Shown one piece after another: positions 44 to 32,325 of a stretch of DNA of 33,798 nucleotides. A program made the position numbers and the translations under genes. The stretch lies in NCBI GenBank assembly GCA_020718275.1, contig DYSI01000022.1, forward strand, positions 1-33,798. Reading direction: 5' to 3'. Origin of the DNA: Draconibacterium orientale (lineage in GTDB: Bacteria > Bacteroidota > Bacteroidia > Bacteroidales > UBA1556). Every line of letters begins with the position of its first letter. Within the stretch, counting starts at the first letter, position 1. Under the pieces are notes generated by a model. That model was not told the DNA's origin, ran no database searches, and was given only the letters and a program-made list of their open reading frames with translations.

Positions 44-2332
44 TTATATTTTTTTTAGATACATTCTACTTGCTGCAATTCCAAGCTGACCCAGCGCAAT
101 GCCGCCATCGTTTGCGGGTACTTTTTGGTGAACAAAGACTTCAAATCCAAGAGATTCTAACCGTTTTATTAAGCCTTCGCTGAGGTATACATTTTGAAAA
201 CTGCCACCAGATAAAACCACTTTACGAATTTTAGTTTGTAAAAACATTGCATGACAGACCTCGGTAGCAGCCTCAATCACGGTATTATGAAATTTAGCAG
301 CGATGGAGGTAATCGGCTGTTTATGAATAATATCTTCAACCAAGGCTCTCAAACAAAGTCGAAAATCAACTCCCTGTGCATCGATGTTATAGGGATAATA
401 TTTTTCGGTTTTAAAACCGAGGATTGCATCTTCGAGTCGCATAGGCGCTTCGGCATGAAATTGCGCCTGATGACATAAATTTAAAATAGCAGAAACTGCA
501 TCAAAGAGGCGTCCGGCAGATGAACTTAATGGGCTATTTATCTCTTTGTCAATCATATCCATTAGAAAAATAGCTTTTACCGATTCAATTTTTTTATTAA
601 ATGGAATTTTCAAATGTAAAAAATCGCGACCAAAAGTATCGTACAGATACGACACTGCCGTCCGCCATGGCTGGTATGCTACTTGATCGCCTCCTGGCAA
701 TGCTATATTTCTAAAATGCGTAAAGCGTTTGAAATCCACCAAATCACCAAAAAGAAACTCCCCACCCCAGATAGTGCCATCTGTTCCTAATCCAGTACCA
801 TCCATAATTACTGCCATAACTGACTCATTTAAACCATTTTCCATCATACAAGCTGCCATGTGAGCGTGGTGATGTTGGACTTTAATTATGGGTAAGTGGC
901 TGCTGGCAGCATATTGTGAAGAGAGATAATCTGGATGTAAATCACTCACCAAATATTGTGGAATAAACTTATAAAGTCTTTTAAAATTTTCAATACTTTG
1001 TTCAAAGAATTCAAAGGTTTCTGCATTTTTCAAATCCCCAATATGCTGCGACAAAATAGCTTGGTGGGTTCGTCCAAGGCAAAAAGTATTTACTAATTCG
1101 GCACCAAGCGCCAAAAAACCATCCACAGAAATCGGTAACCTAATTGGGGAAGGAACAAATCCCCGTGAGCGTCGAATTAAACTAAATTTATCGTTAATCA
1201 TCACACCAACCGAATCATCAACTCGATTATAAATGCTACGATTGTATGAAACAATTGCTTTAATTTTACTTTGAAAAGCCGTGAGAATACTTGTTTCATC
1301 TATAATAGTTGGTTCCCCAGCAAGATTTGCAGAGGTAAAAACAAGCGAATCCAATTTACAATTTTCAAAAAGCAAATAATGAAAAGGCATATATGGCAAA
1401 ATAGCCCCTAGGCGATGAAGGCCACGATTGATGCTGAATGGCAAATCCTTATACATATTTAACAAAATGATGGATTTACGCCACGACCGAAGTGCCAAAA
1501 TTTCGTTATTCGACAGGGTGGCATATTGCGAAATCGTCTCTAAATTCCTAAACATAACAGCCATCGGCTTACCATCGCGATGCTTTATAGATCGCAAATT
1601 AGCCACTGCCCCCTCGGAATTAGCATCACAAATCAGATGATAGCCTCCCATGCCTTTAATTGCAATAGTTTCTCCCTCTTCGAGCCAAGCCGCTGCTTTC
1701 TGTAAAATTTGTGTAATTTCTCTTGAAATGATACTTTCAGATTCAATTAAATACACTGGCCCACAATGAGAACAAGCAATCGGCTGGGCATGAAATCGAC
1801 GATCCTTTATATCCTCATATTCACGCTTACATTCTACGCACATTGGAAATACCGACATGGTGGTATTAGTCCGATCATAAGGTAAAGCTTTGATAATACT
1901 AAAACGAGGTCCGCAATGAGTACAATTTGTTAATGGATAATTGAGTCGATTGGATTGGCTTTTAATATCCTCCAAACAGTCATCACAAACGGCAATATCT
2001 GGACTTATTTCTGTAATTTCATCCGTAATTGGATTATTGTAGCTTTTAACAATCGTGAAGTCCTGAAAAATCAGTGGTGATATTTTCTTAAATTCTATTT
2101 TTTCGATTGATGAAGCTGTGGGAGCCTTGGTTTGAATAGCCGATATGAATTGGTAAATCCCATTTTCGGTGGTATTCAATTGAATTATTACTCCATCATT
2201 GCGATTATCAACGGTACCTAGACATTGGAATTGAGTGGCTAAACGTACTATAAATGGGCGGAATCCAACCCCTTGCACTAATCCAATCACTCGAATTTGA
2301 TATGTAGAAAATTCTTGATTCATCTTGGGCAA
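44..2332 (-). CDS. hypF: Carbamoyltransferase HypF ([NiFe] hydrogenase maturation); start may be the internal Met at 2323
   Basis: N-terminal acylphosphatase motif (VIGLVQGVGFRPFI), two CxxC...CxxC zinc-finger-like blocks (CDDC..CTHC, CVEC..CSHC), VQHHHAHMAACM motif, C-terminal VVLSGGSFQN. Confidence 0.95.
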   Translation of the reverse strand: MPKMNQEFSTYQIRVIGLVQGVGFRPFIVRLATQFQCLGTVDNRNDGVIIQLNTTENGIYQFISAIQTKAPTASSIEKIEFKKISPLIFQDFTIVKSYNNPITDEITEISPDIAVCDDCLEDIKSQSNRLNYPLTNCTHCGPRFSIIKALPYDRTNTTMSVFPMCVECKREYEDIKDRRFHAQPIACSHCGPVYLIESESIISREITQILQKAAAWLEEGETIAIKGMGGYHLICDANSEGAVANLRSIKHRDGKPMAVMFRNLETISQYATLSNNEILALRSWRKSIILLNMYKDLPFSINRGLHRLGAILPYMPFHYLLFENCKLDSLVFTSANLAGEPTIIDETSILTAFQSKIKAIVSYNRSIYNRVDDSVGVMINDKFSLIRRSRGFVPSPIRLPISVDGFLALGAELVNTFCLGRTHQAILSQHIGDLKNAETFEFFEQSIENFKRLYKFIPQYLVSDLHPDYLSSQYAASSHLPIIKVQHHHAHMAACMMENGLNESVMAVIMDGTGLGTDGTIWGGEFLFGDLVDFKRFTHFRNIALPGGDQVAYQPWRTAVSYLYDTFGRDFLHLKIPFNKKIESVKAIFLMDMIDKEINSPLSSSAGRLFDAVSAILNLCHQAQFHAEAPMRLEDAILGFKTEKYYPYNIDAQGVDFRLCLRALVEDIIHKQPITSIAAKFHNTVIEAATEVCHAMFLQTKIRKVVLSGGSFQNVYLSEGLIKRLESLGFEVFVHQKVPANDGGIALGQLGIAASRMYLKKI

Positions 2333-4793: not shown

Positions 4794-4867
4794 TGATCCG
4801 GGCGGGATTCGAACCCACGGCCCGCAGCTTAGAAGGCTGCTGCTCTATCCAACTGAGCTACCGGACC
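4794..4867 (-). tRNA. tRNA-Arg (anticodon TCT)
   Basis: Minus strand GGTCCGGTAGCTCAGTTGGATAGAGCAGCAGCCTTCTAAGCTGCGGGCCGTGGGTTCGAATCCCGCCCGGATCA; full cloverleaf, acceptor GGTCCGG/CCGGATC, TTCGAAT T-loop, anticodon TCT. Confidence 0.95.
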
Positions 4868-4966: not shown

Positions 4967-5041
4967 TCGGGGTAGCAGGATTCGAACCTGCGACCCCCTG
5001 CTCCCAAAGCAGGTGCGCTAGCCGGGCTGCGCTATACCCCG
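4967..5041 (-). tRNA. tRNA-Pro (anticodon TGG)
   Basis: Minus strand CGGGGTATAGCGCAGCCCGGCTAGCGCACCTGCTTTGGGAGCAGGGGGTCGCAGGTTCGAATCCTGCTACCCCGA; acceptor CGGGGTA/TACCCCG, anticodon TGG. Confidence 0.95.
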
Positions 5042-25753: not shown

Positions 25754-27775
25754 ATGAAAATGATTTTGACACTTTTATTGAGTCTGATGATGGTGGGTTT
25801 GCAAGCGCAAACAAACCTTTTATCCGATAATTTTGAATCAGGCAGTGGAAACTGGACCCTCACCAATGGCTGGGGTTTAAGTACTGTAAGTTCTAATTCA
25901 TCCTCACACTCCTTAACAGAAAGCCCAACAGGTAATTACAGCGACAATATTACATCAATGGCTACCCTAACCACTGGCGTAAATTTAAGTTCAGCCTTAA
26001 ATGCCGATTTAAGTTTTTGGGCCAAATACGTTCTCGAAGGTGGTTTTGATTATATGTATCTTGAAGTTTCACCCAATGGAGGTACTACTTGGGTACAGCT
26101 CGATAGTTTTGACGATACCTTAGCCAATTGGACAAAATTCAGTTATTCATTAGGTGGCTATGTTGGCAATTCTAATGTTAAAATTAGATTTAAATTTGTC
26201 AGTGATGGCGCGGTAAATTTCGACGGGATGTATATTGATGACGTTGAAATTTATTCAGACACAACCGACAATTCAGAACCTTTGATATTGCATAACGAAC
26301 CTAGCTTTTACAGTGCTTCATTGAATACCTTTCCAGCCATTGCCAGCATTATTGACATTTCGGGTTTGTCCTACACCAAATGCTTTTATACCGTTGACGG
26401 TGGCAGTTTAGACAGCGTAAGTTATAGCTCTTTAGTTGGGAACACCTACACCTTTCCAATTCCAGCACAACAACCTGGTGCTCATGTAGATTACTACTTC
26501 ATTGCCATTGATAGTGCGCCTGCTCACAACGCTGTGGTCACCCAAACTTATCATTACATTCAAGGAAATTACATTAGTTATGATAATGCCGTAACTAATT
26601 TCGTAGATTCTACCGCCGTAGGAGGAGGAGCCGCTGTTCGCATCACCTTAGCAGGACCCGTTCAATTAACAACGATCTTATTACGAAATTATATAGACGT
26701 AAATCGCGATAATGACAGTATGCTAATCCACGTATGGGCCAATAACAATGGCGTTCCAGGCACCGATTTAATTACACCATTTAAAGTATTTCCATGGGCA
26801 ACTTTACAAAATACCAGTCCAATGACCGTGGTTGATTTAAGATCAGATTCACTAAGCTTAACTGGGCTGACTGGAGATATTTTTATTGGATTTACAGTTC
26901 CGGTCGGAGGAGTTTGGACTACTATTACCCAGCCAGGAACAGGAGGCAGATCCTTCAAATACAGTACGTCTGGTTGGACGATTAATACCAATACAGATTT
27001 TCATTTTAGAGCCATTACTTCGGGGCTTCTTGGACTTCCCACGGCAAATTTTACCTATAATAATTCGGCCATGCCGCAAATCAGCTTTCAAGATTCTTCA
27101 CTCGATGCTACAAGCTGGTCATGGAATTTTGGGGATGGAAGTCCGCTGAGCAATTTACAAAACCCAAGTCATGCCTATACCCACAATGGAATTTTTAATG
27201 TTTGCTTAATTGCTGGAAATCTTATAGGTACCGACACTATTTGCAAGTATGTAACTATCAACTCCTTCCCCACTCCGGTAAGTGCATTTATTTACGATGA
27301 TTCACAAAATCCTACTATTCAATTCACAGATCAATCCACCCAAAGTCCTCTAGCATGGAGTTGGCATTTTGGTTACAACGGCATGACAAGTGGTCAACCA
27401 AATCCAAGTTTCACCTATCCTAATGCAACGCAAACGTATCAAGTTTGTTTAACGGCTGCCAACCTTAACGGAATTGGAGATACTTCCTGCCAAACAATTA
27501 GTATTTTGAGTGACGGATTGAATGAAATTGAAGCTAAATATGTTAATATTTTCCCAAATCCAATGACCGAAAAAGCGCTGTTCAAAATAAATATTAACAC
27601 CAACAAAGCATTGACTTTCAATCTGTACGATGCCAGCGGGAAGCTTATTCAAGCTGACATTCAAGTCGTGAGTGAGGGAATTTTATTAAAACGCGGAAGT
27701 TTAAGTGCTGGAAATTATCTCTTTGAAATCATACAAGAAGGTCAAAAACATTCTGGAAAAATTATAGTCCAGTAA
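25754..27775 (+). CDS. Secreted PKD-domain protein with T9SS C-terminal sorting domain
   Basis: Signal peptide (MILTLLLSLMMVGLQAQ); N-terminal jelly-roll/MAM-like region (LSDNFESGSGNWTLTNGWGLS...); two PKD units (SWNFGDGSPLSNLQNPSHAYTHNGIFNVCL; SWHFGYNGMTSGQPNPSFTYPNATQTYQVCL); IFPNPMTEKALFKI...LYDASGKLIQ...GNYLFEIIQEGQKHSGKIIVQ sorting domain. Confidence 0.9.
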   Translation: MKMILTLLLSLMMVGLQAQTNLLSDNFESGSGNWTLTNGWGLSTVSSNSSSHSLTESPTGNYSDNITSMATLTTGVNLSSALNADLSFWAKYVLEGGFDYMYLEVSPNGGTTWVQLDSFDDTLANWTKFSYSLGGYVGNSNVKIRFKFVSDGAVNFDGMYIDDVEIYSDTTDNSEPLILHNEPSFYSASLNTFPAIASIIDISGLSYTKCFYTVDGGSLDSVSYSSLVGNTYTFPIPAQQPGAHVDYYFIAIDSAPAHNAVVTQTYHYIQGNYISYDNAVTNFVDSTAVGGGAAVRITLAGPVQLTTILLRNYIDVNRDNDSMLIHVWANNNGVPGTDLITPFKVFPWATLQNTSPMTVVDLRSDSLSLTGLTGDIFIGFTVPVGGVWTTITQPGTGGRSFKYSTSGWTINTNTDFHFRAITSGLLGLPTANFTYNNSAMPQISFQDSSLDATSWSWNFGDGSPLSNLQNPSHAYTHNGIFNVCLIAGNLIGTDTICKYVTINSFPTPVSAFIYDDSQNPTIQFTDQSTQSPLAWSWHFGYNGMTSGQPNPSFTYPNATQTYQVCLTAANLNGIGDTSCQTISILSDGLNEIEAKYVNIFPNPMTEKALFKININTNKALTFNLYDASGKLIQADIQVVSEGILLKRGSLSAGNYLFEIIQEGQKHSGKIIVQ

Positions 27776-27792
27776 GCGCGGTAAATTCCCCA

Positions 27793-27846
27793 AAAAATAA
27801 TTCGGCAGAAATTCATTGATTGAAGTTCTGCCGAATTATTTTTTTT
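27793..27846. terminator. Strong bidirectional terminator hairpin between convergent genes
   Basis: AATAATTCGGCAGAA (27796-27810) / TTCTGCCGAATTATT (27826-27840), 15-bp perfect stem with flanking A- and T-runs. Confidence 0.85.
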
Positions 27847-27861
27847 AGACGGTTCTAAAGA

Positions 27862-28581
27862 TTAGCTTTTCAAACTAATTTGAAGAATTCTACCGTTCAT
27901 AAGAGCGCCATGGTGCACAGCAAAATTGGCTAAAAACTCCCCAAATTCATCCGCACTAATAGGTGCTACAAAACCAGGAAAAGCTTCGTTTAGCATTTCT
28001 GTTTGCACACTTCCGGGATTTATACAATTGCAATGCACTTTGTATCGATGCCACTCTGCCGCCATTGACTCAGTAAGACTATTAACGGCCGCTTTAGAAG
28101 CGCTGTAGGCACCTAAACCAGGGAATTTTTGAGTACCTTGAATACCACCCATACTACCGATATTTACAATATGAGTGAGTTTTTCGGTTGAAAAATGGGG
28201 AAATAGGGATTGTGCTAATTTCAGCATTGCGTATGTATTCACCCGAAAAGTTTTTTCCCAATCATCGATAGAAGTATCAAATAAACTCTTGTTAATCAGA
28301 TATCCAGCATTGTTAATTAAGATGTCAACGCTTTGACCTTTTTCAAAATCAAAAAAAGCAGCTATTTCACGAATCAGTGGTAGATAATCCTTTTCCGACA
28401 AATCGAAGGAGAAACCAAACATCTCGGAATCAGCATTATATTCCGACAATTCATTTTTTAGCTGCTGCAAATTAAAAGCAGACCTAGCAATTGCAAAAAT
28501 ATGATGACCACCCTCTTTGAATAATGCTTTCAAAGTAGCCTTTCCTATTCCTTTGCTTGCCCCTGTAATTACTATATTCAT
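27862..28581 (-). CDS. SDR-family oxidoreductase; candidate sepiapterin-reductase-type enzyme by context
   Basis: Start at 28581 (MNIVITGASKGIGKATL) preferred over 28623. TGxxxGIG, NNAG (DILINNAGY), YSASK (LGAYSASKAAV). 13 nt downstream of the hydroxylase gene. Confidence 0.85.
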   Translation of the reverse strand: MNIVITGASKGIGKATLKALFKEGGHHIFAIARSAFNLQQLKNELSEYNADSEMFGFSFDLSEKDYLPLIREIAAFFDFEKGQSVDILINNAGYLINKSLFDTSIDDWEKTFRVNTYAMLKLAQSLFPHFSTEKLTHIVNIGSMGGIQGTQKFPGLGAYSASKAAVNSLTESMAAEWHRYKVHCNCINPGSVQTEMLNEAFPGFVAPISADEFGEFLANFAVHHGALMNGRILQISLKS

Positions 28582-28594
28582 CTTTCGAGAAAAA

Positions 28595-30334
28595 TTAATG
28601 ATTTTCAATAATCCGTATTCCATTTAAAATCAAAGTAGCAAACTGAGGAAATCGTTCCACTTTACCCAACAAATCGGTTTTAATGGAACTTGCTAGTTTA
28701 GCTATTTTCAACTGGATGGCCAATTCATAGATTTCGATACTCAGCAACCAATTATCAGGGTAATCAATCATAACCTTTTGATAGAGTTTGGTCAATTTTG
28801 AATCACCTTTAGATTTGATTCTAAAATCTCGAATTTCTTGATAATATCGCATCAACTGAGCATCCGACTGCATAGCATGTTGTGTGAAAGTATCCGAGAC
28901 ATAGGTTTGGGCTTCAGCCTCATTTTTATCTGCTAGCCCTGCGAAAACACTAGTAACTTGCTTACCAACAGCCATATCGTAAACTCCCCATTCTGGCTGA
29001 AACAAAATCTCGTCATTAAATCGCACAGTACAATCAACAAAAGTCATCAGCAACACCTTGCCGTATTTATTTTTGCGAATATATTTAAGTTTACCTTCCA
29101 CACAAACTCCTGATTGAAAATCCAAGCGAACCCAGAGACCAGTAATAATACCTATTTGCGCCAAATGTTGCAAGCTCATATTTTCGAGCGGAGACTGCAT
29201 GTTTTTTAGTAACCCAATGGGCGTACCGAAGCCCTCTGTATGTACATTCACGCCATGACCAATCATCACTCTTTCCCTTTCGCAAAGCATACTAGGTCCA
29301 GTGGTTTTTAGGTAGGCAATTTCTCCCTGCTCATCCAAAATCATTCGCGTAAAAATGCCACTAATTTGCAAGCCTGATGAAAGTTCAACACTAGCTTCCG
29401 CTTCACTATCAATGGCTTTTTGGACGCTTTTTGCGCCGCCAAGACGCAAGGCCATGGTATCGGCAAACTCATTAAGGACAATGGTTAAATGAATGAAGTT
29501 AGGGGTAACAAAAAGCTGCGGTTGCTGCGTGGTAATATCGAAAGATTTATCGGCGGCCTCAATGGTATATGGAAGCTTTATAACTCGCTCGCTCAAACAG
29601 TTGACACTTTCGCCAATGGAAGACAATAAACCAGCGCCATAAAGTTTTGGATTTTCAAATTCCCCAATCAGGCCATATTCAACGGTCCACCAATGCAGAT
29701 TGCGTATTTTTGACATTTCTGACATTTCTCCCATATAACGTTGTATTTCTACAACTTGTAATTCGGCTTCAGAAATCTCTTCGGCGGTAGAATGGCGATT
29801 TTCCTTAACAATAGAAAGTCGGCGAATGGCTTCATACAAATCATTATCGCGTTTAGAACTGATCGCCTTACTACCAATAGCACCAAAAAGACGGAGGTAT
29901 TCAGCATATTCGGCATCGGCAATAATCGGGGCATGGCCAGCAGCTTCATGAAAAATATCTGGCGCAGGAGTATATTCAATATGGCCAATGCTGCGTATGT
30001 CGGCCGCAATGACCAATACATGATAAGCTTGAAATTCCATAAAAACAGTTGGAGGAATAAAGCCATCAACACAGACAGCAGCCCAGCCAATCTTTTCTAA
30101 AATAGAATTGATTTCATCGATATTGGGAATTTTTTCAAAGCAAATCCCTGTTTGCTTAAGCCCTTCGACAAATGATTGATGAGCATTTTCGGCTAAAAAG
30201 TCAAAACTAATTCGCATCATATAACGCCATACTGCGTGGTCTTCGGGAGTATAATTAGCGTAATTTTGATTCACTACATATTTATGCAAATGCAGTGGTA
30301 AGCGTTTTAAATTTTCGTTTTTAGTCAGATACAT
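28595..30334 (-). CDS. Pterin-dependent aromatic amino acid hydroxylase (phenylalanine 4-monooxygenase family), long Bacteroidota-type form
   Basis: HIEYTPAPDIFHEAAGHAPIIAD (facial triad His129/His134) and LHWWTVEYGLIGE (Glu219); GAGLLSSIGE. C-terminal region of about 300 aa beyond the catalytic core. Confidence 0.92.
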   Translation of the reverse strand: MYLTKNENLKRLPLHLHKYVVNQNYANYTPEDHAVWRYMMRISFDFLAENAHQSFVEGLKQTGICFEKIPNIDEINSILEKIGWAAVCVDGFIPPTVFMEFQAYHVLVIAADIRSIGHIEYTPAPDIFHEAAGHAPIIADAEYAEYLRLFGAIGSKAISSKRDNDLYEAIRRLSIVKENRHSTAEEISEAELQVVEIQRYMGEMSEMSKIRNLHWWTVEYGLIGEFENPKLYGAGLLSSIGESVNCLSERVIKLPYTIEAADKSFDITTQQPQLFVTPNFIHLTIVLNEFADTMALRLGGAKSVQKAIDSEAEASVELSSGLQISGIFTRMILDEQGEIAYLKTTGPSMLCERERVMIGHGVNVHTEGFGTPIGLLKNMQSPLENMSLQHLAQIGIITGLWVRLDFQSGVCVEGKLKYIRKNKYGKVLLMTFVDCTVRFNDEILFQPEWGVYDMAVGKQVTSVFAGLADKNEAEAQTYVSDTFTQHAMQSDAQLMRYYQEIRDFRIKSKGDSKLTKLYQKVMIDYPDNWLLSIEIYELAIQLKIAKLASSIKTDLLGKVERFPQFATLILNGIRIIENH

Positions 30335-30411
30335 ATTAGATTAAGCGTTTTAATTTTAAAAATTGGTTTTACAATTTATGCGGCTCATATCAAATAAACT
30401 GATCTATCTAA

Positions 30412-30825
30412 TTATTCGCCGTAGTATTCGGCAATATTATTCTCCGTTTCAAAAAGCTGCAATTTATACAATTTTCTCATGTCGTTATCAATCAATGGCT
30501 TCAGTTCATTCCAGAAACAGAAAAGTAAGTTTTCGGAAGTAGTATTAACGCCATTTAAAAAGTCGACATCCACATTTAGATTCCGATGATCAACTTTAGC
30601 AATGATGGCGTCATTAATAATTTTCTTCAACAATTTAGTATCCATCACATAACCGGAGATTGGATCGATAGAACCCTTCACCGTAACAAAGAGTTCGTAA
30701 TTGTGTCCATGATAATTAAGCAGCGCACATTTATCAAAAATGGCTTCGTTTTCGGATGGCGAAAGCGATTGATTCCACAACTTATGTGCAGCGCTAAATC
30801 GTTCTCTTCTAGTAATATAGAACAT
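30412..30825 (-). CDS. 6-pyruvoyl-tetrahydropterin synthase / 6-carboxytetrahydropterin synthase (PTPS/QueD) family
   Basis: RRERFSAAHKL, CALLNYHGHNYEL (Cys-x5-HGHNY), MDTKLLKKII, DHRNLN, TSENLLFCFW, FETENNIAEYYGE. Confidence 0.92.
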   Translation of the reverse strand: MFYITRRERFSAAHKLWNQSLSPSENEAIFDKCALLNYHGHNYELFVTVKGSIDPISGYVMDTKLLKKIINDAIIAKVDHRNLNVDVDFLNGVNTTSENLLFCFWNELKPLIDNDMRKLYKLQLFETENNIAEYYGE

Positions 30826-30827
30826 AG

Positions 30828-31400
30828 TTAGTAATCTAAAATTTGTAGTAAATGATTTTCAAATTGTTGCAAATACAAGTCAATTGTTGGATTCTTAGTC
30901 ACGTCGTGCAAAGTAAAAGTAGGAGCTTTTGTCAGCCCTATAAATTTTTGCGCACTATGAAAGTGAAAAAAAACATCGTCAACAGATTTATCACCAAAGA
31001 GATAAGCATTGGGATTATTGAGCGCTTCGGAGGGAGCGTTCCAAGTGGTCACTAAAGAATATTTGGCTTGGAGTAATCCAGCAGTTCCATACTGCCCACC
31101 ATCTTGACGCCCATCATGGAGATATATTTTTCCTCGACCACCAGAATAAACACGATCCAAATAGTGTTTAAAACTAGCAGGGATATCCATCCAATAAACG
31201 GGCGTAAAATAGATTATCAAATCTGCCTGTAGGAACTTATTAACTTCTTCTTCAAGCTTATAAGGCAATCGCACCTGACTTAGCGCGAGCGTGTGATTCC
31301 TTGATTCAAAGAAGGATTGCGCAAATTCAAACAAAGTTTGATTTAGTCGTCCTTGAGATTTTGGCCAGACTTCGTGTCCATTAATCAGTAAAACTTGCAT
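30828..31400 (-). CDS. mdaB: MdaB-like NAD(P)H dehydrogenase (quinone), flavodoxin-like fold
   Basis: Start at 31400 (MQVLLINGHEVWPKSQGRLNQTLFEFA) preferred over 31484. ADLIIYFTPVYWMDIPASFKHYLDRVYSGGRGKIYLHDGR, LVTTWNAPSEAL, FHSAQKFIGL follow the MdaB pattern. Confidence 0.88.
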   Translation of the reverse strand: MQVLLINGHEVWPKSQGRLNQTLFEFAQSFFESRNHTLALSQVRLPYKLEEEVNKFLQADLIIYFTPVYWMDIPASFKHYLDRVYSGGRGKIYLHDGRQDGGQYGTAGLLQAKYSLVTTWNAPSEALNNPNAYLFGDKSVDDVFFHFHSAQKFIGLTKAPTFTLHDVTKNPTIDLYLQQFENHLLQILDY

Positions 31401-31404
31401 AAGC

Positions 31405-32028
31405 CTAGAGGTCAAATAAATCTTGTTTACGAACTTTTTTATAATGCTGATAATCGTCTTCTTGACTCCTATATCCAGTAGCACATAAAACCAAAGGTTT
31501 CAATCCTTTCTCTTCAAGATCAAGTAATTGGGCAAATCGATTAGCATCAAAACCTTCCATCGGACATGCATCAATTTCATCTAAAGCACATACAGTAAGT
31601 AAGTTACCTAAGGCAATATAAGTTTGTTTTGCAGCCCAGGCTTGTTTCTGCTCGTTTGTGTAATTGGTAACAAAGCCTTTAATCATAGATGATAGTCCGC
31701 CTAAAGCCTCTAGCTCAAGTTGCCTAGTAGCAGCAGTTAATTGGATAAATTGATCAGCATACGCTTCGTCAATGGATTCAATGGCACAAAATAGAAAAAG
31801 GTGCGAAGCAGTTGTAATTTGAGCCTGATTATAAGACAAAGGTAGTAGCAGCTCCTTAGTTGCTTGATCACTGATTACCATAATCTTATAAGGTTGTAAT
31901 CCCATCGAAGAAGCCGTTAAACTCAATGCATGCTTTAGTTTTTCAACTTGCGTTTCGGATAAAATCTTGGTGGAATCAAATTTTTTTACCGCATAACGCC
32001 ATTTTAATTGTTCAATAAGATCCTTCAT
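31405..32028 (-). CDS. NfsB-like NAD(P)H-dependent nitroreductase family oxidoreductase
   Basis: WRYAVKKFDSTKILSETQVEKLKHALSLTASSMGLQPYKIMVIS, AAKQTYIALGNLLTVCALDEIDACPMEGFDANRFAQLLDLEEKGLKPLVLCATGYRSQEDD: same block order as E. coli NfsB. Confidence 0.9.
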   Translation of the reverse strand: MKDLIEQLKWRYAVKKFDSTKILSETQVEKLKHALSLTASSMGLQPYKIMVISDQATKELLLPLSYNQAQITTASHLFLFCAIESIDEAYADQFIQLTAATRQLELEALGGLSSMIKGFVTNYTNEQKQAWAAKQTYIALGNLLTVCALDEIDACPMEGFDANRFAQLLDLEEKGLKPLVLCATGYRSQEDDYQHYKKVRKQDLFDL

Positions 32029-32325
32029 GTTTTTTATATTTTTAGATATTTAGTTAAACCAAAAATCTAGGAAAAGCCATTTCCATAATTACTAATACTG
32101 AGAGGTAAATGAAAACAGCAATTCAGCAAATTTAGGTCAAATAAATGACTAAATAATAGAACATGATAAATATTAAAATGCATAATAATCCCAATGTTTA
32201 TTCAATAAAATTACAGTTTTAAAAAACAATTATTCAAATAAATGATATTTTTTGAATCAAAATCAAAAAAAAATCGTATCATAGTACTTTCAAGTAGCTA
32301 AATATCAAAACTTAATATTTGACTT

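What the first reader, a model, noticed from the sequence alone, without database searches (positions are those of the whole stretch)
27862..32028. Candidate self-contained pterin-cofactor synthesis, use and recycling operon around an aromatic amino acid hydroxylase
Seen: five same-strand genes in the order NfsB-like nitroreductase, MdaB-like quinone reductase, PTPS-family enzyme, aromatic amino acid hydroxylase, SDR, with intergenic gaps of about 4, 2, 76 and 13 nt. Established: in animals BH4 is made by GTP cyclohydrolase I, PTPS and sepiapterin reductase (an SDR), is used by aromatic amino acid hydroxylases, and is regenerated by dihydropteridine reductase; E. coli NfsB/NfnB has been annotated with dihydropteridine reductase activity. 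Inference: the cluster could supply synthesis (PTPS, SDR), use (hydroxylase) and reductive recycling (NfsB-like and/or MdaB-like). Neither a GTP cyclohydrolase nor a pterin-4a-carbinolamine dehydratase is in the window. I cannot tell whether this exact arrangement has been described before.
Basis: partly seen in the sequence, partly recalled or inferred. Interest (0 to 1): 0.72.

Follow-up and report, generated by a model that had tools for sequence, protein, structure and literature searches.

The report
Phenylalanine hydroxylase operon with cofactor-making genes
In an uncultured Bacteroidales lineage, the enzyme that turns phenylalanine into tyrosine sits in one operon with genes that probably make and recycle its animal-like pterin cofactor; the enzyme families are known, but two of the partners look like unrecognised stand-ins for the animal enzymes.

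Summary
The five genes are real: minus strand, gaps 4, 2, 77 and 13 nt, closed by a strong hairpin terminator. The PTPS has the C-x5-HGH signature of the biopterin-making subfamily (PTPS-II). It is not a QueD: sister genomes carry a separate QueD. GTP cyclohydrolase I lies on another contig, so the cluster is not self-contained. PTPS-II directly neighbours folE in most other Bacteroidales loci read. Conservation is uneven among the five hydroxylase-positive genus members: quinone reductase-hydroxylase-SDR in 5/5, PTPS adjacent in 3/5 (PTPS-II elsewhere in the other two), nitroreductase in 2/5, plus a decayed relic in a sixth genome. The SDR is not orthologous to the known bacterial sepiapterin reductase. 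It nevertheless sits directly after the hydroxylase in five families, forms one clade, and tracks PTPS-II across Bacteroidales families (p=2e-6): a candidate non-orthologous pyruvoyl-tetrahydropterin/sepiapterin reductase. The quinone reductase occurs only in the five hydroxylase-positive genomes (0/55 others). With carbinolamine dehydratase undetected in the genus, it is the best recycling candidate, by inference. HPPD occurs in all ten hydroxylase-positive genomes and one other, so the operon most likely opens phenylalanine catabolism. New variant of a known kind; all functions unassayed.

The parts
31405..32028 (-). NfsB-like nitroreductase (FMN family PF00881)
   Evidence: Pfam 7.5e-22; NfsB model PRK11053 141 bits, below its cut-off of 227; PDB hits include a chain named dihydropteridine reductase. 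Conserved in place only in G007, plus a relic in G002
30828..31400 (-). MdaB-like quinone reductase (flavodoxin fold), start at ATG 31400
   Evidence: PF02525 2.1e-26; best PDB match Modulator of drug activity B 2.9e-39; start from alignment A3; present in all 5 hydroxylase-positive genus members and in none of 55 other genomes
30412..30825 (-). 6-pyruvoyl-tetrahydropterin synthase, PTPS-II subfamily
   Evidence: PF01242 2.2e-32; best PDB match mammalian PTPS 8e-32; C-x5-HGH; all Zn and catalytic residues conserved
28595..30334 (-). long-form aromatic amino acid (phenylalanine) hydroxylase
   Evidence: NF010657 737 bits over cut-off 346; best PDB match 7vgm phenylalanine-4-hydroxylase 4e-149 over residues 11-549; iron ligands H129, H134, E219
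27862..28581 (-). short-chain dehydrogenase/reductase of a PAH- and PTPS-II-linked clade; candidate pyruvoyl-tetrahydropterin/sepiapterin reductase; start ATG 28581
   Evidence: PF00106 2.3e-45; one clade of 50 sequences (98/98) separate from the Chlorobium-type sepiapterin reductase; S143, Y159, K163 present
27792..27846 (.). hairpin with T run after the SDR, also downstream of the convergent gene 25754-27775 (bidirectional terminator)
   Evidence: fold of -32.1 kcal/mol for 27776-27861
32127..32134 (-). TAnnTTTG (Bacteroidota -7 type) element in the gap upstream of the nitroreductase; weak, no better than chance
   Evidence: exact match TAAATTTG; none on this strand in the PTPS-PAH gap

Best explanation
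This is a phenylalanine-hydroxylation operon that carries part of its own cofactor pathway. FolE (encoded elsewhere) makes dihydroneopterin triphosphate, the operon PTPS-II converts it to 6-pyruvoyl-tetrahydropterin, and the SDR reduces that to a tetrahydrobiopterin-type cofactor (stereochemistry unknown). The hydroxylase uses the cofactor, O2 and iron to convert phenylalanine to tyrosine, which enters the HPPD/homogentisate route. The oxidised cofactor, after spontaneous dehydration of the carbinolamine (no dehydratase was detected), is reduced again by a flavoprotein: MdaB-like first choice, NfsB-like second. Shown by sequence: gene set, PTPS-II signature, catalytic residues, conserved linkage, co-occurrence with folE, HPPD and PTPS-II. 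Inferred: all enzyme activities, the SDR step, the recycling step and the identity of the cofactor.
For: PTPS-II motif C-x5-HGH and all catalytic residues, the published signature of biopterin-pathway PTPS (PMC5041015). Sister genomes hold a separate C-x3-HGH QueD. PTPS-II abuts folE in most Bacteroidales loci read, including the genus members whose PTPS is outside the operon. The hydroxylase occurs only with PTPS-II in the 60-genome sample (10/10, p=1.5e-5). HPPD is in 10/10 hydroxylase-positive and 1/50 other genomes (p=1e-10). The SDR follows the hydroxylase in the genus, f53, f72, f101 and a Vicingaceae MAG. SDR and PTPS-II co-occur with one genome per family 13/2/5/30, p=2e-6. Families that lack this SDR but were read at the PTPS-II/folE locus often carry another SDR there (f60, f62, f67, f85), in f67/f85 a clade whose tested member has Chlorobium sepiapterin reductase 2bd0 as best PDB match. 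MdaB-like gene: 5/5 hydroxylase-positive genus members, 0/55 others. Dehydratase family not found in 11 genus genomes.
Against: No enzymology and no transcript data. PTPS-II-profile matches are nearly universal in the phylum sample (370/396), so PTPS-II must have uses beyond this hydroxylase. The SDR has no sequence or fold match that singles out pterin reductases. It is present in 48 phylum-sample genomes without the hydroxylase, and missing in 5 of 61 with it. MdaB is confined to one genus, so its 5/5 counts related genomes. The nitroreductase is often absent. The genome is 71% complete, so absences in it are weak.
Confidence: 0.68

Rival explanations
1. The SDR is the quinonoid dihydropterin reductase (recycling, as the animal dihydropteridine reductase, itself an SDR), and pyruvoyl-tetrahydropterin is reduced by some other enzyme.
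For: Direct adjacency to the hydroxylase in five families and 56/61 co-occurrence in the phylum fit a hydroxylase-specific recycling enzyme.
Against: In Bacteroidales the SDR follows PTPS-II, not the hydroxylase (family level p=2e-6 against p=0.25). It occurs in 13 hydroxylase-negative genomes of the 60 and in 48 of the phylum sample. It keeps S143-Y159-K163, whereas animal dihydropteridine reductase lacks the serine (own knowledge).
Confidence: 0.2
2. The NfsB- and MdaB-like flavoproteins have nothing to do with the pterin; they are redox-stress or detoxification genes co-transcribed with the rest.
For: Both families are broad-specificity reductases. The nitroreductase is in place in only 2 of 5 hydroxylase-positive genus members, and these two genes are absent beside the hydroxylase outside the genus.
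Against: The MdaB-like gene is in all five hydroxylase-positive genus genomes and no other genome searched, always directly upstream of PTPS or the hydroxylase. Nitroreductase-family dihydropteridine reductases exist (Rhodobacter NprA, cited by title in PMC6017928).
Confidence: 0.35
3. The hydroxylase uses tetrahydromonapterin made by a FolX/FolM-type route as in Pseudomonas and E. coli; PTPS-II serves another purpose.
For: Bacterial hydroxylases are described as using tetrahydromonapterin (PMC10354952), and biopterin as rare in bacteria (PMC13259868).
Against: PTPS-II lies in the operon or elsewhere in every hydroxylase-positive genome of the 60. The operon SDR has TGASKGIG, without the arginine of the pteridine reductase motif TGX3RXG. 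FolX/FolM themselves were not searched.
Confidence: 0.12
4. The PTPS is a QueD (queuosine) or folate-type enzyme that is in the cluster by chance.
For: NCBIfam puts it only below cut-off in both the general 6PTHBS and the QueD model; it is the only PTPS found in this incomplete assembly.
Against: C-x5-HGH motif and best match to mammalian PTPS. G005-G008 carry a separate QueD-type gene. PTPS-II neighbours folE in many families.
Confidence: 0.04

Closest known systems
Animal tetrahydrobiopterin pathway (GTP cyclohydrolase I, PTPS, sepiapterin reductase, aromatic hydroxylase, carbinolamine dehydratase, dihydropteridine reductase)
   Same: Same order of chemistry is predicted; PTPS shares motif and residues with the mammalian enzyme
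   Different: SDR not recognisable as the animal sepiapterin reductase; no carbinolamine dehydratase found; recycling enzyme would be a flavoprotein instead of an SDR; genes in one operon except folE
Pseudomonas phhA-phhB-type phenylalanine hydroxylase clusters (Zhao et al. 1994, cited in PMC9048412)
   Same: Phenylalanine hydroxylase in an operon with helper genes; catabolic role
   Different: Short-form hydroxylase with phhB and aminotransferase there; here a long-form hydroxylase (NF010657), no phhB, and PTPS/SDR/flavoproteins instead
Chlorobium/cyanobacterial biopterin synthesis (PTPS-II plus sepiapterin reductase such as PDB 2bd0)
   Same: PTPS-II plus an SDR; in families f67 and f85 of the phylum sample PTPS-II-folE-2bd0-like SDR form one cluster
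   Different: The window SDR is only 25-28% identical to those and lies in another clade; the product there is linked to pterin glycosides, here to a hydroxylase
Bacteroidota hydroxylase beside the homogentisate pathway (G041, G056, f53)
   Same: Same hydroxylase family; HPPD always present in hydroxylase-positive genomes of the 60-genome sample
   Different: In the window's genus the hydroxylase is beside cofactor genes; HPPD is on other contigs

Membership tests
PTPS-II (biopterin-type 6-pyruvoyl-tetrahydropterin synthase) | C-x5-HGH motif | tested here: met
   CALLNYHGH in the window; same spacing in all 14 aligned relatives; motif definition from PMC5041015
PTPS-II (biopterin-type 6-pyruvoyl-tetrahydropterin synthase) | Zn ligands and catalytic Cys/Asp-His/Glu | tested here: met
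   H14, H39, H41, C33, D79, H80, E126 invariant
PTPS-II (biopterin-type 6-pyruvoyl-tetrahydropterin synthase) | makes 6-pyruvoyl-tetrahydropterin | not testable with these tools
   needs enzyme assay
QueD (PTPS-I) | C-x3-HGH motif and QueD model cut-off | tested here: not met
   spacing is x5; TIGR03367 57.9 bits against 89.25
Aromatic amino acid hydroxylase NF010657 | model cut-off and 2-His-1-Glu iron site | tested here: met
   737 bits over 346; H129, H134, E219
Phenylalanine catabolism via homogentisate | HPPD in the same genome | tested here: met
   G000:C40:56037-57101, over cut-off; 10/10 hydroxylase-positive genomes
Sepiapterin reductase (Chlorobium type 2bd0 or animal) | closest relatives among sepiapterin reductases | tested here: not met
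   none among the best 60 PDB matches of the SDR or of its profile; 25-28% identity to the 2bd0-like clade, separate clade in tree
Sepiapterin reductase (Chlorobium type 2bd0 or animal) | genomic linkage to PTPS-II / biopterin use | tested here: met
   co-occurrence p=2e-6 by family; adjacency to hydroxylase in five families
Pteridine reductase (FolM/PTR1/PruA) | TGX3RXG motif | tested here: not met
   TGASKGIG, glycine in place of arginine
MdaB | homology to MdaB quinone reductase | tested here: met
   PDB 3rpe 2.9e-39, 4s24 1.5e-38; NCBIfam gave no MdaB model hit
NfsB / oxygen-insensitive nitroreductase (annotated dihydropteridine reductase) | PRK11053 equivalog cut-off | tested here: not met
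   141 bits against 227; homologous but not inside the equivalog
Dihydropteridine-recycling enzyme | NAD(P)H-dependent reduction of quinonoid dihydropterin | not testable with these tools
   only linkage evidence for MdaB
Five-gene operon as a conserved unit | all five genes together in relatives | tested here: not met
   all five only in G000 and G007; core of three in 5/5
Pterin-4a-carbinolamine dehydratase-dependent hydroxylase system | PF01329 gene in genome | tested here: not met
   0 of 11 genus genomes; several are incomplete

The most novel reading that the evidence does not exclude
Many Bacteroidota make a biopterin-type cofactor through PTPS-II and an unrecognised SDR clade that replaces the known sepiapterin reductases; and in this genus an MdaB-like flavoprotein recycles the quinonoid dihydropterin in the absence of carbinolamine dehydratase and of an animal-type dihydropteridine reductase.
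Probability: 0.35. Interest if true: 0.65.

Novelty: new variant of a known kind. Interest (0 to 1): 0.52.

Why it matters
Biopterin is described as rare in bacteria (PMC13259868), and only about 50 PTPS proteins were predicted to serve it in 2016 (PMC5041015). PTPS-II next to folE in many Bacteroidota families, with three unrelated SDR types beside it or linked to it, suggests that the pathway is much more common there and that its last step was filled more than once. The operon gives a compact set of five genes with which to test cofactor synthesis, use and recycling together, and names two concrete candidates (SDR and MdaB-like) for missing steps.

Tried and rejected
QueD reading of the PTPS: rejected by motif and by the separate QueD gene in sisters. 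FolM/PTR1-type reading of the SDR: rejected by motif. Tyrosine-biosynthesis role: disfavoured because HPPD follows the hydroxylase almost exactly; TyrA was not searched. AlphaFold model of the SDR (mean pLDDT 82; only 4 sequences; about residues 141-160 and the C-terminus weak) and Foldseek against the PDB gave only generic SDRs: uninformative. Sigma-70-type promoter and terminator scan equals shuffles, and the Bacteroidota promoter pattern is at chance: no evidence for or against an internal promoter. Alignment A4 contained an MdaB row by mistake and was discarded. Literature searches found no description of this arrangement, but the library lacks most subscription journals.
Full report
OBSERVATION. 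Five ORFs on the minus strand were confirmed: nitroreductase 31405-32028, MdaB-like 30828-31400, PTPS 30412-30825, hydroxylase 28595-30334, SDR 27862-28581. The longer MdaB and SDR ORFs start upstream in the preceding gene; alignment with relatives supports the inner ATGs. Gaps are 4, 2, 77 and 13 nt, and a -32 kcal/mol hairpin with a T run closes the unit.

FAMILIES. The hydroxylase is the long form NF010657 at 737 bits (cut-off 346), aligned over nearly its whole length with the solved 592-residue enzyme 7vgm, with its three iron ligands. The PTPS carries C-x5-HGH, the published signature of the biopterin subfamily PTPS-II, has all Zn and catalytic residues, and its best solved match is mammalian PTPS. 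The QueD model is below cut-off, and G005-G008 each hold a second PTPS of the C-x3-HGH QueD type. The MdaB-like protein matches MdaB structures at 1e-38. The nitroreductase is NfsB-like but below the equivalog cut-off. The SDR matches only generic SDRs.

REST OF THE PATHWAY. GTP cyclohydrolase I is at G000:C71:4621-5145. Pterin-carbinolamine dehydratase was found in none of the 11 genus genomes and in only one of the ten hydroxylase-positive genomes of the 60-genome sample, G023. HPPD, which acts two steps on in tyrosine breakdown (after transamination), is over cut-off in 10 of 10 hydroxylase-positive and 1 of 50 other genomes, and within the genus in exactly the five hydroxylase-positive members. 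The most likely role is therefore phenylalanine catabolism.

CONSERVATION. Genus members: G007 has all five genes; G008 has MdaB-PTPS-hydroxylase-SDR; G005 and G006 have MdaB-hydroxylase-SDR, with a different-branch PTPS-II directly joined to folE on another contig. So every hydroxylase-positive genus member has one PTPS-II, in the operon or beside folE. In G002 a 32-residue nitroreductase fragment runs straight into a hydroxylase C-terminal fragment with stops, next to the same DHH-family gene that lies near the cluster in the window: a decayed cluster at the same site, which shows that nitroreductase and hydroxylase were already together in an ancestor. Outside the genus none of the best 80 hydroxylase loci has MdaB, PTPS or nitroreductase beside it, but a Vicingaceae MAG has hydroxylase-SDR. 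A sample of 396 genomes across the phylum adds hydroxylase-SDR pairs in f53, f72 and f101.

CO-OCCURRENCE. In 60 genomes (50 families) the SDR (at least 200 bits) and PTPS-II: 18 both, 2 SDR only, 5 PTPS-II only, 35 neither (p=5e-9); one genome per family 13/2/5/30 (p=2e-6). SDR with hydroxylase by family in the same sample: p=0.25. Hydroxylase always with PTPS-II (10/10). In the phylum sample hydroxylase and SDR: 56/5/48/287, by family 7/2/1/46 (p=1e-6). Limits: PTPS-II status was read from the motif for all genomes counted positive and for several counted negative; the other negatives rest on match length and range only. PTPS-II-profile matches are nearly universal outside Bacteroidales (370/396), and for the weaker of these the motif was not read. 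The MdaB profile hit 5/5 hydroxylase-positive genus members and 0/55 others; these five are relatives, although mostly only about 50% identical to the window's MdaB.

IDENTITY OF THE SDR. PTPS-II is followed by folE in most loci read. In families f67 and f85 a further SDR follows folE; for the member tested (L226) the best solved match is Chlorobium sepiapterin reductase 2bd0, a positive control for the idea that the SDR next to PTPS-II is the reductase. In f60 and f62 yet another SDR type follows folE. These families have no window-type SDR. The window-type SDR forms one clade of 50 sequences (98/98), apart from both. Non-orthologous replacement of sepiapterin reductase is the simplest reading; the whole genomes were not checked for the other two types, so mutual exclusion is shown only at the level of families and PTPS-II loci.

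MECHANISM. FolE, then PTPS-II, then SDR make a tetrahydrobiopterin-type cofactor; the hydroxylase uses it; the oxidised form is reduced again, most likely by the MdaB-like flavoprotein, possibly by the nitroreductase (a nitroreductase-family dihydropteridine reductase is on record by title, NprA of Rhodobacter). Estimates: pterin supply for the hydroxylase about 0.8; SDR as pyruvoyl-tetrahydropterin/sepiapterin reductase about 0.55; MdaB as recycling enzyme about 0.45; nitroreductase in recycling about 0.25.

NOVELTY. Each family is known, phenylalanine hydroxylase operons with helper genes are known (Pseudomonas phh; PMC9048412), and PTPS-II gene clustering as a route to function is published (PMC5041015). 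I found no description of this arrangement in the held library, which misses most subscription journals. New are the predicted non-orthologous reductase clade and the flavoprotein recycling partner.

Noticed in passing
L217, L222, L226, L232, L233, L235 (families f67, f85): PTPS-II - folE - SDR clusters in which the SDR's relatives include Chlorobium sepiapterin reductase 2bd0 (tested for L226): apparent complete biopterin operons in Bacteroidota without the hydroxylase beside them.
   Followed up: partly
L210, L214, L225, L229, L234 (families f60, f62): A third SDR type, unrelated to the other two at 20-29% identity, follows PTPS-II - folE.
   Followed up: partly
L027:2541-2832 (G002): Fragment of the nitroreductase fused to a C-terminal fragment of the hydroxylase with stops, upstream of the DHH gene: a decayed copy of the cluster.
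   Followed up: yes
L283:6927-7643 (G003): Window-type SDR at a contig end beside the same DHH and FKBP-like genes as in the window; the hydroxylase may be missing only because the contig ends.
   Followed up: partly
L218, L237 (family f54): Two PTPS-II genes in tandem before folE; function of the second copy unknown.
   Followed up: no
L025:8422-10155 (G041): Hydroxylase reading frame interrupted by stops or frame breaks, next to an intact homogentisate pathway cluster.
   Followed up: no
L273-L277 and L288 (families f72, f74): The SDR keeps the same neighbours (HisC-like aminotransferase, sirtuin-like gene) whether or not the hydroxylase lies between, suggesting loss or insertion of the hydroxylase alone.
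   Followed up: partly
window 25754-27775: Secreted PKD-domain protein with type IX secretion sorting tail, convergent with the operon.
   Followed up: no
window 4794-4867 and 4967-5041, minus strand: Two tRNA genes about 100 nt apart.
   Followed up: no
window 44-2332, minus strand: HypF (hydrogenase maturation carbamoyltransferase), which hints at a hydrogenase in an organism that also uses an O2-dependent hydroxylase.
   Followed up: no
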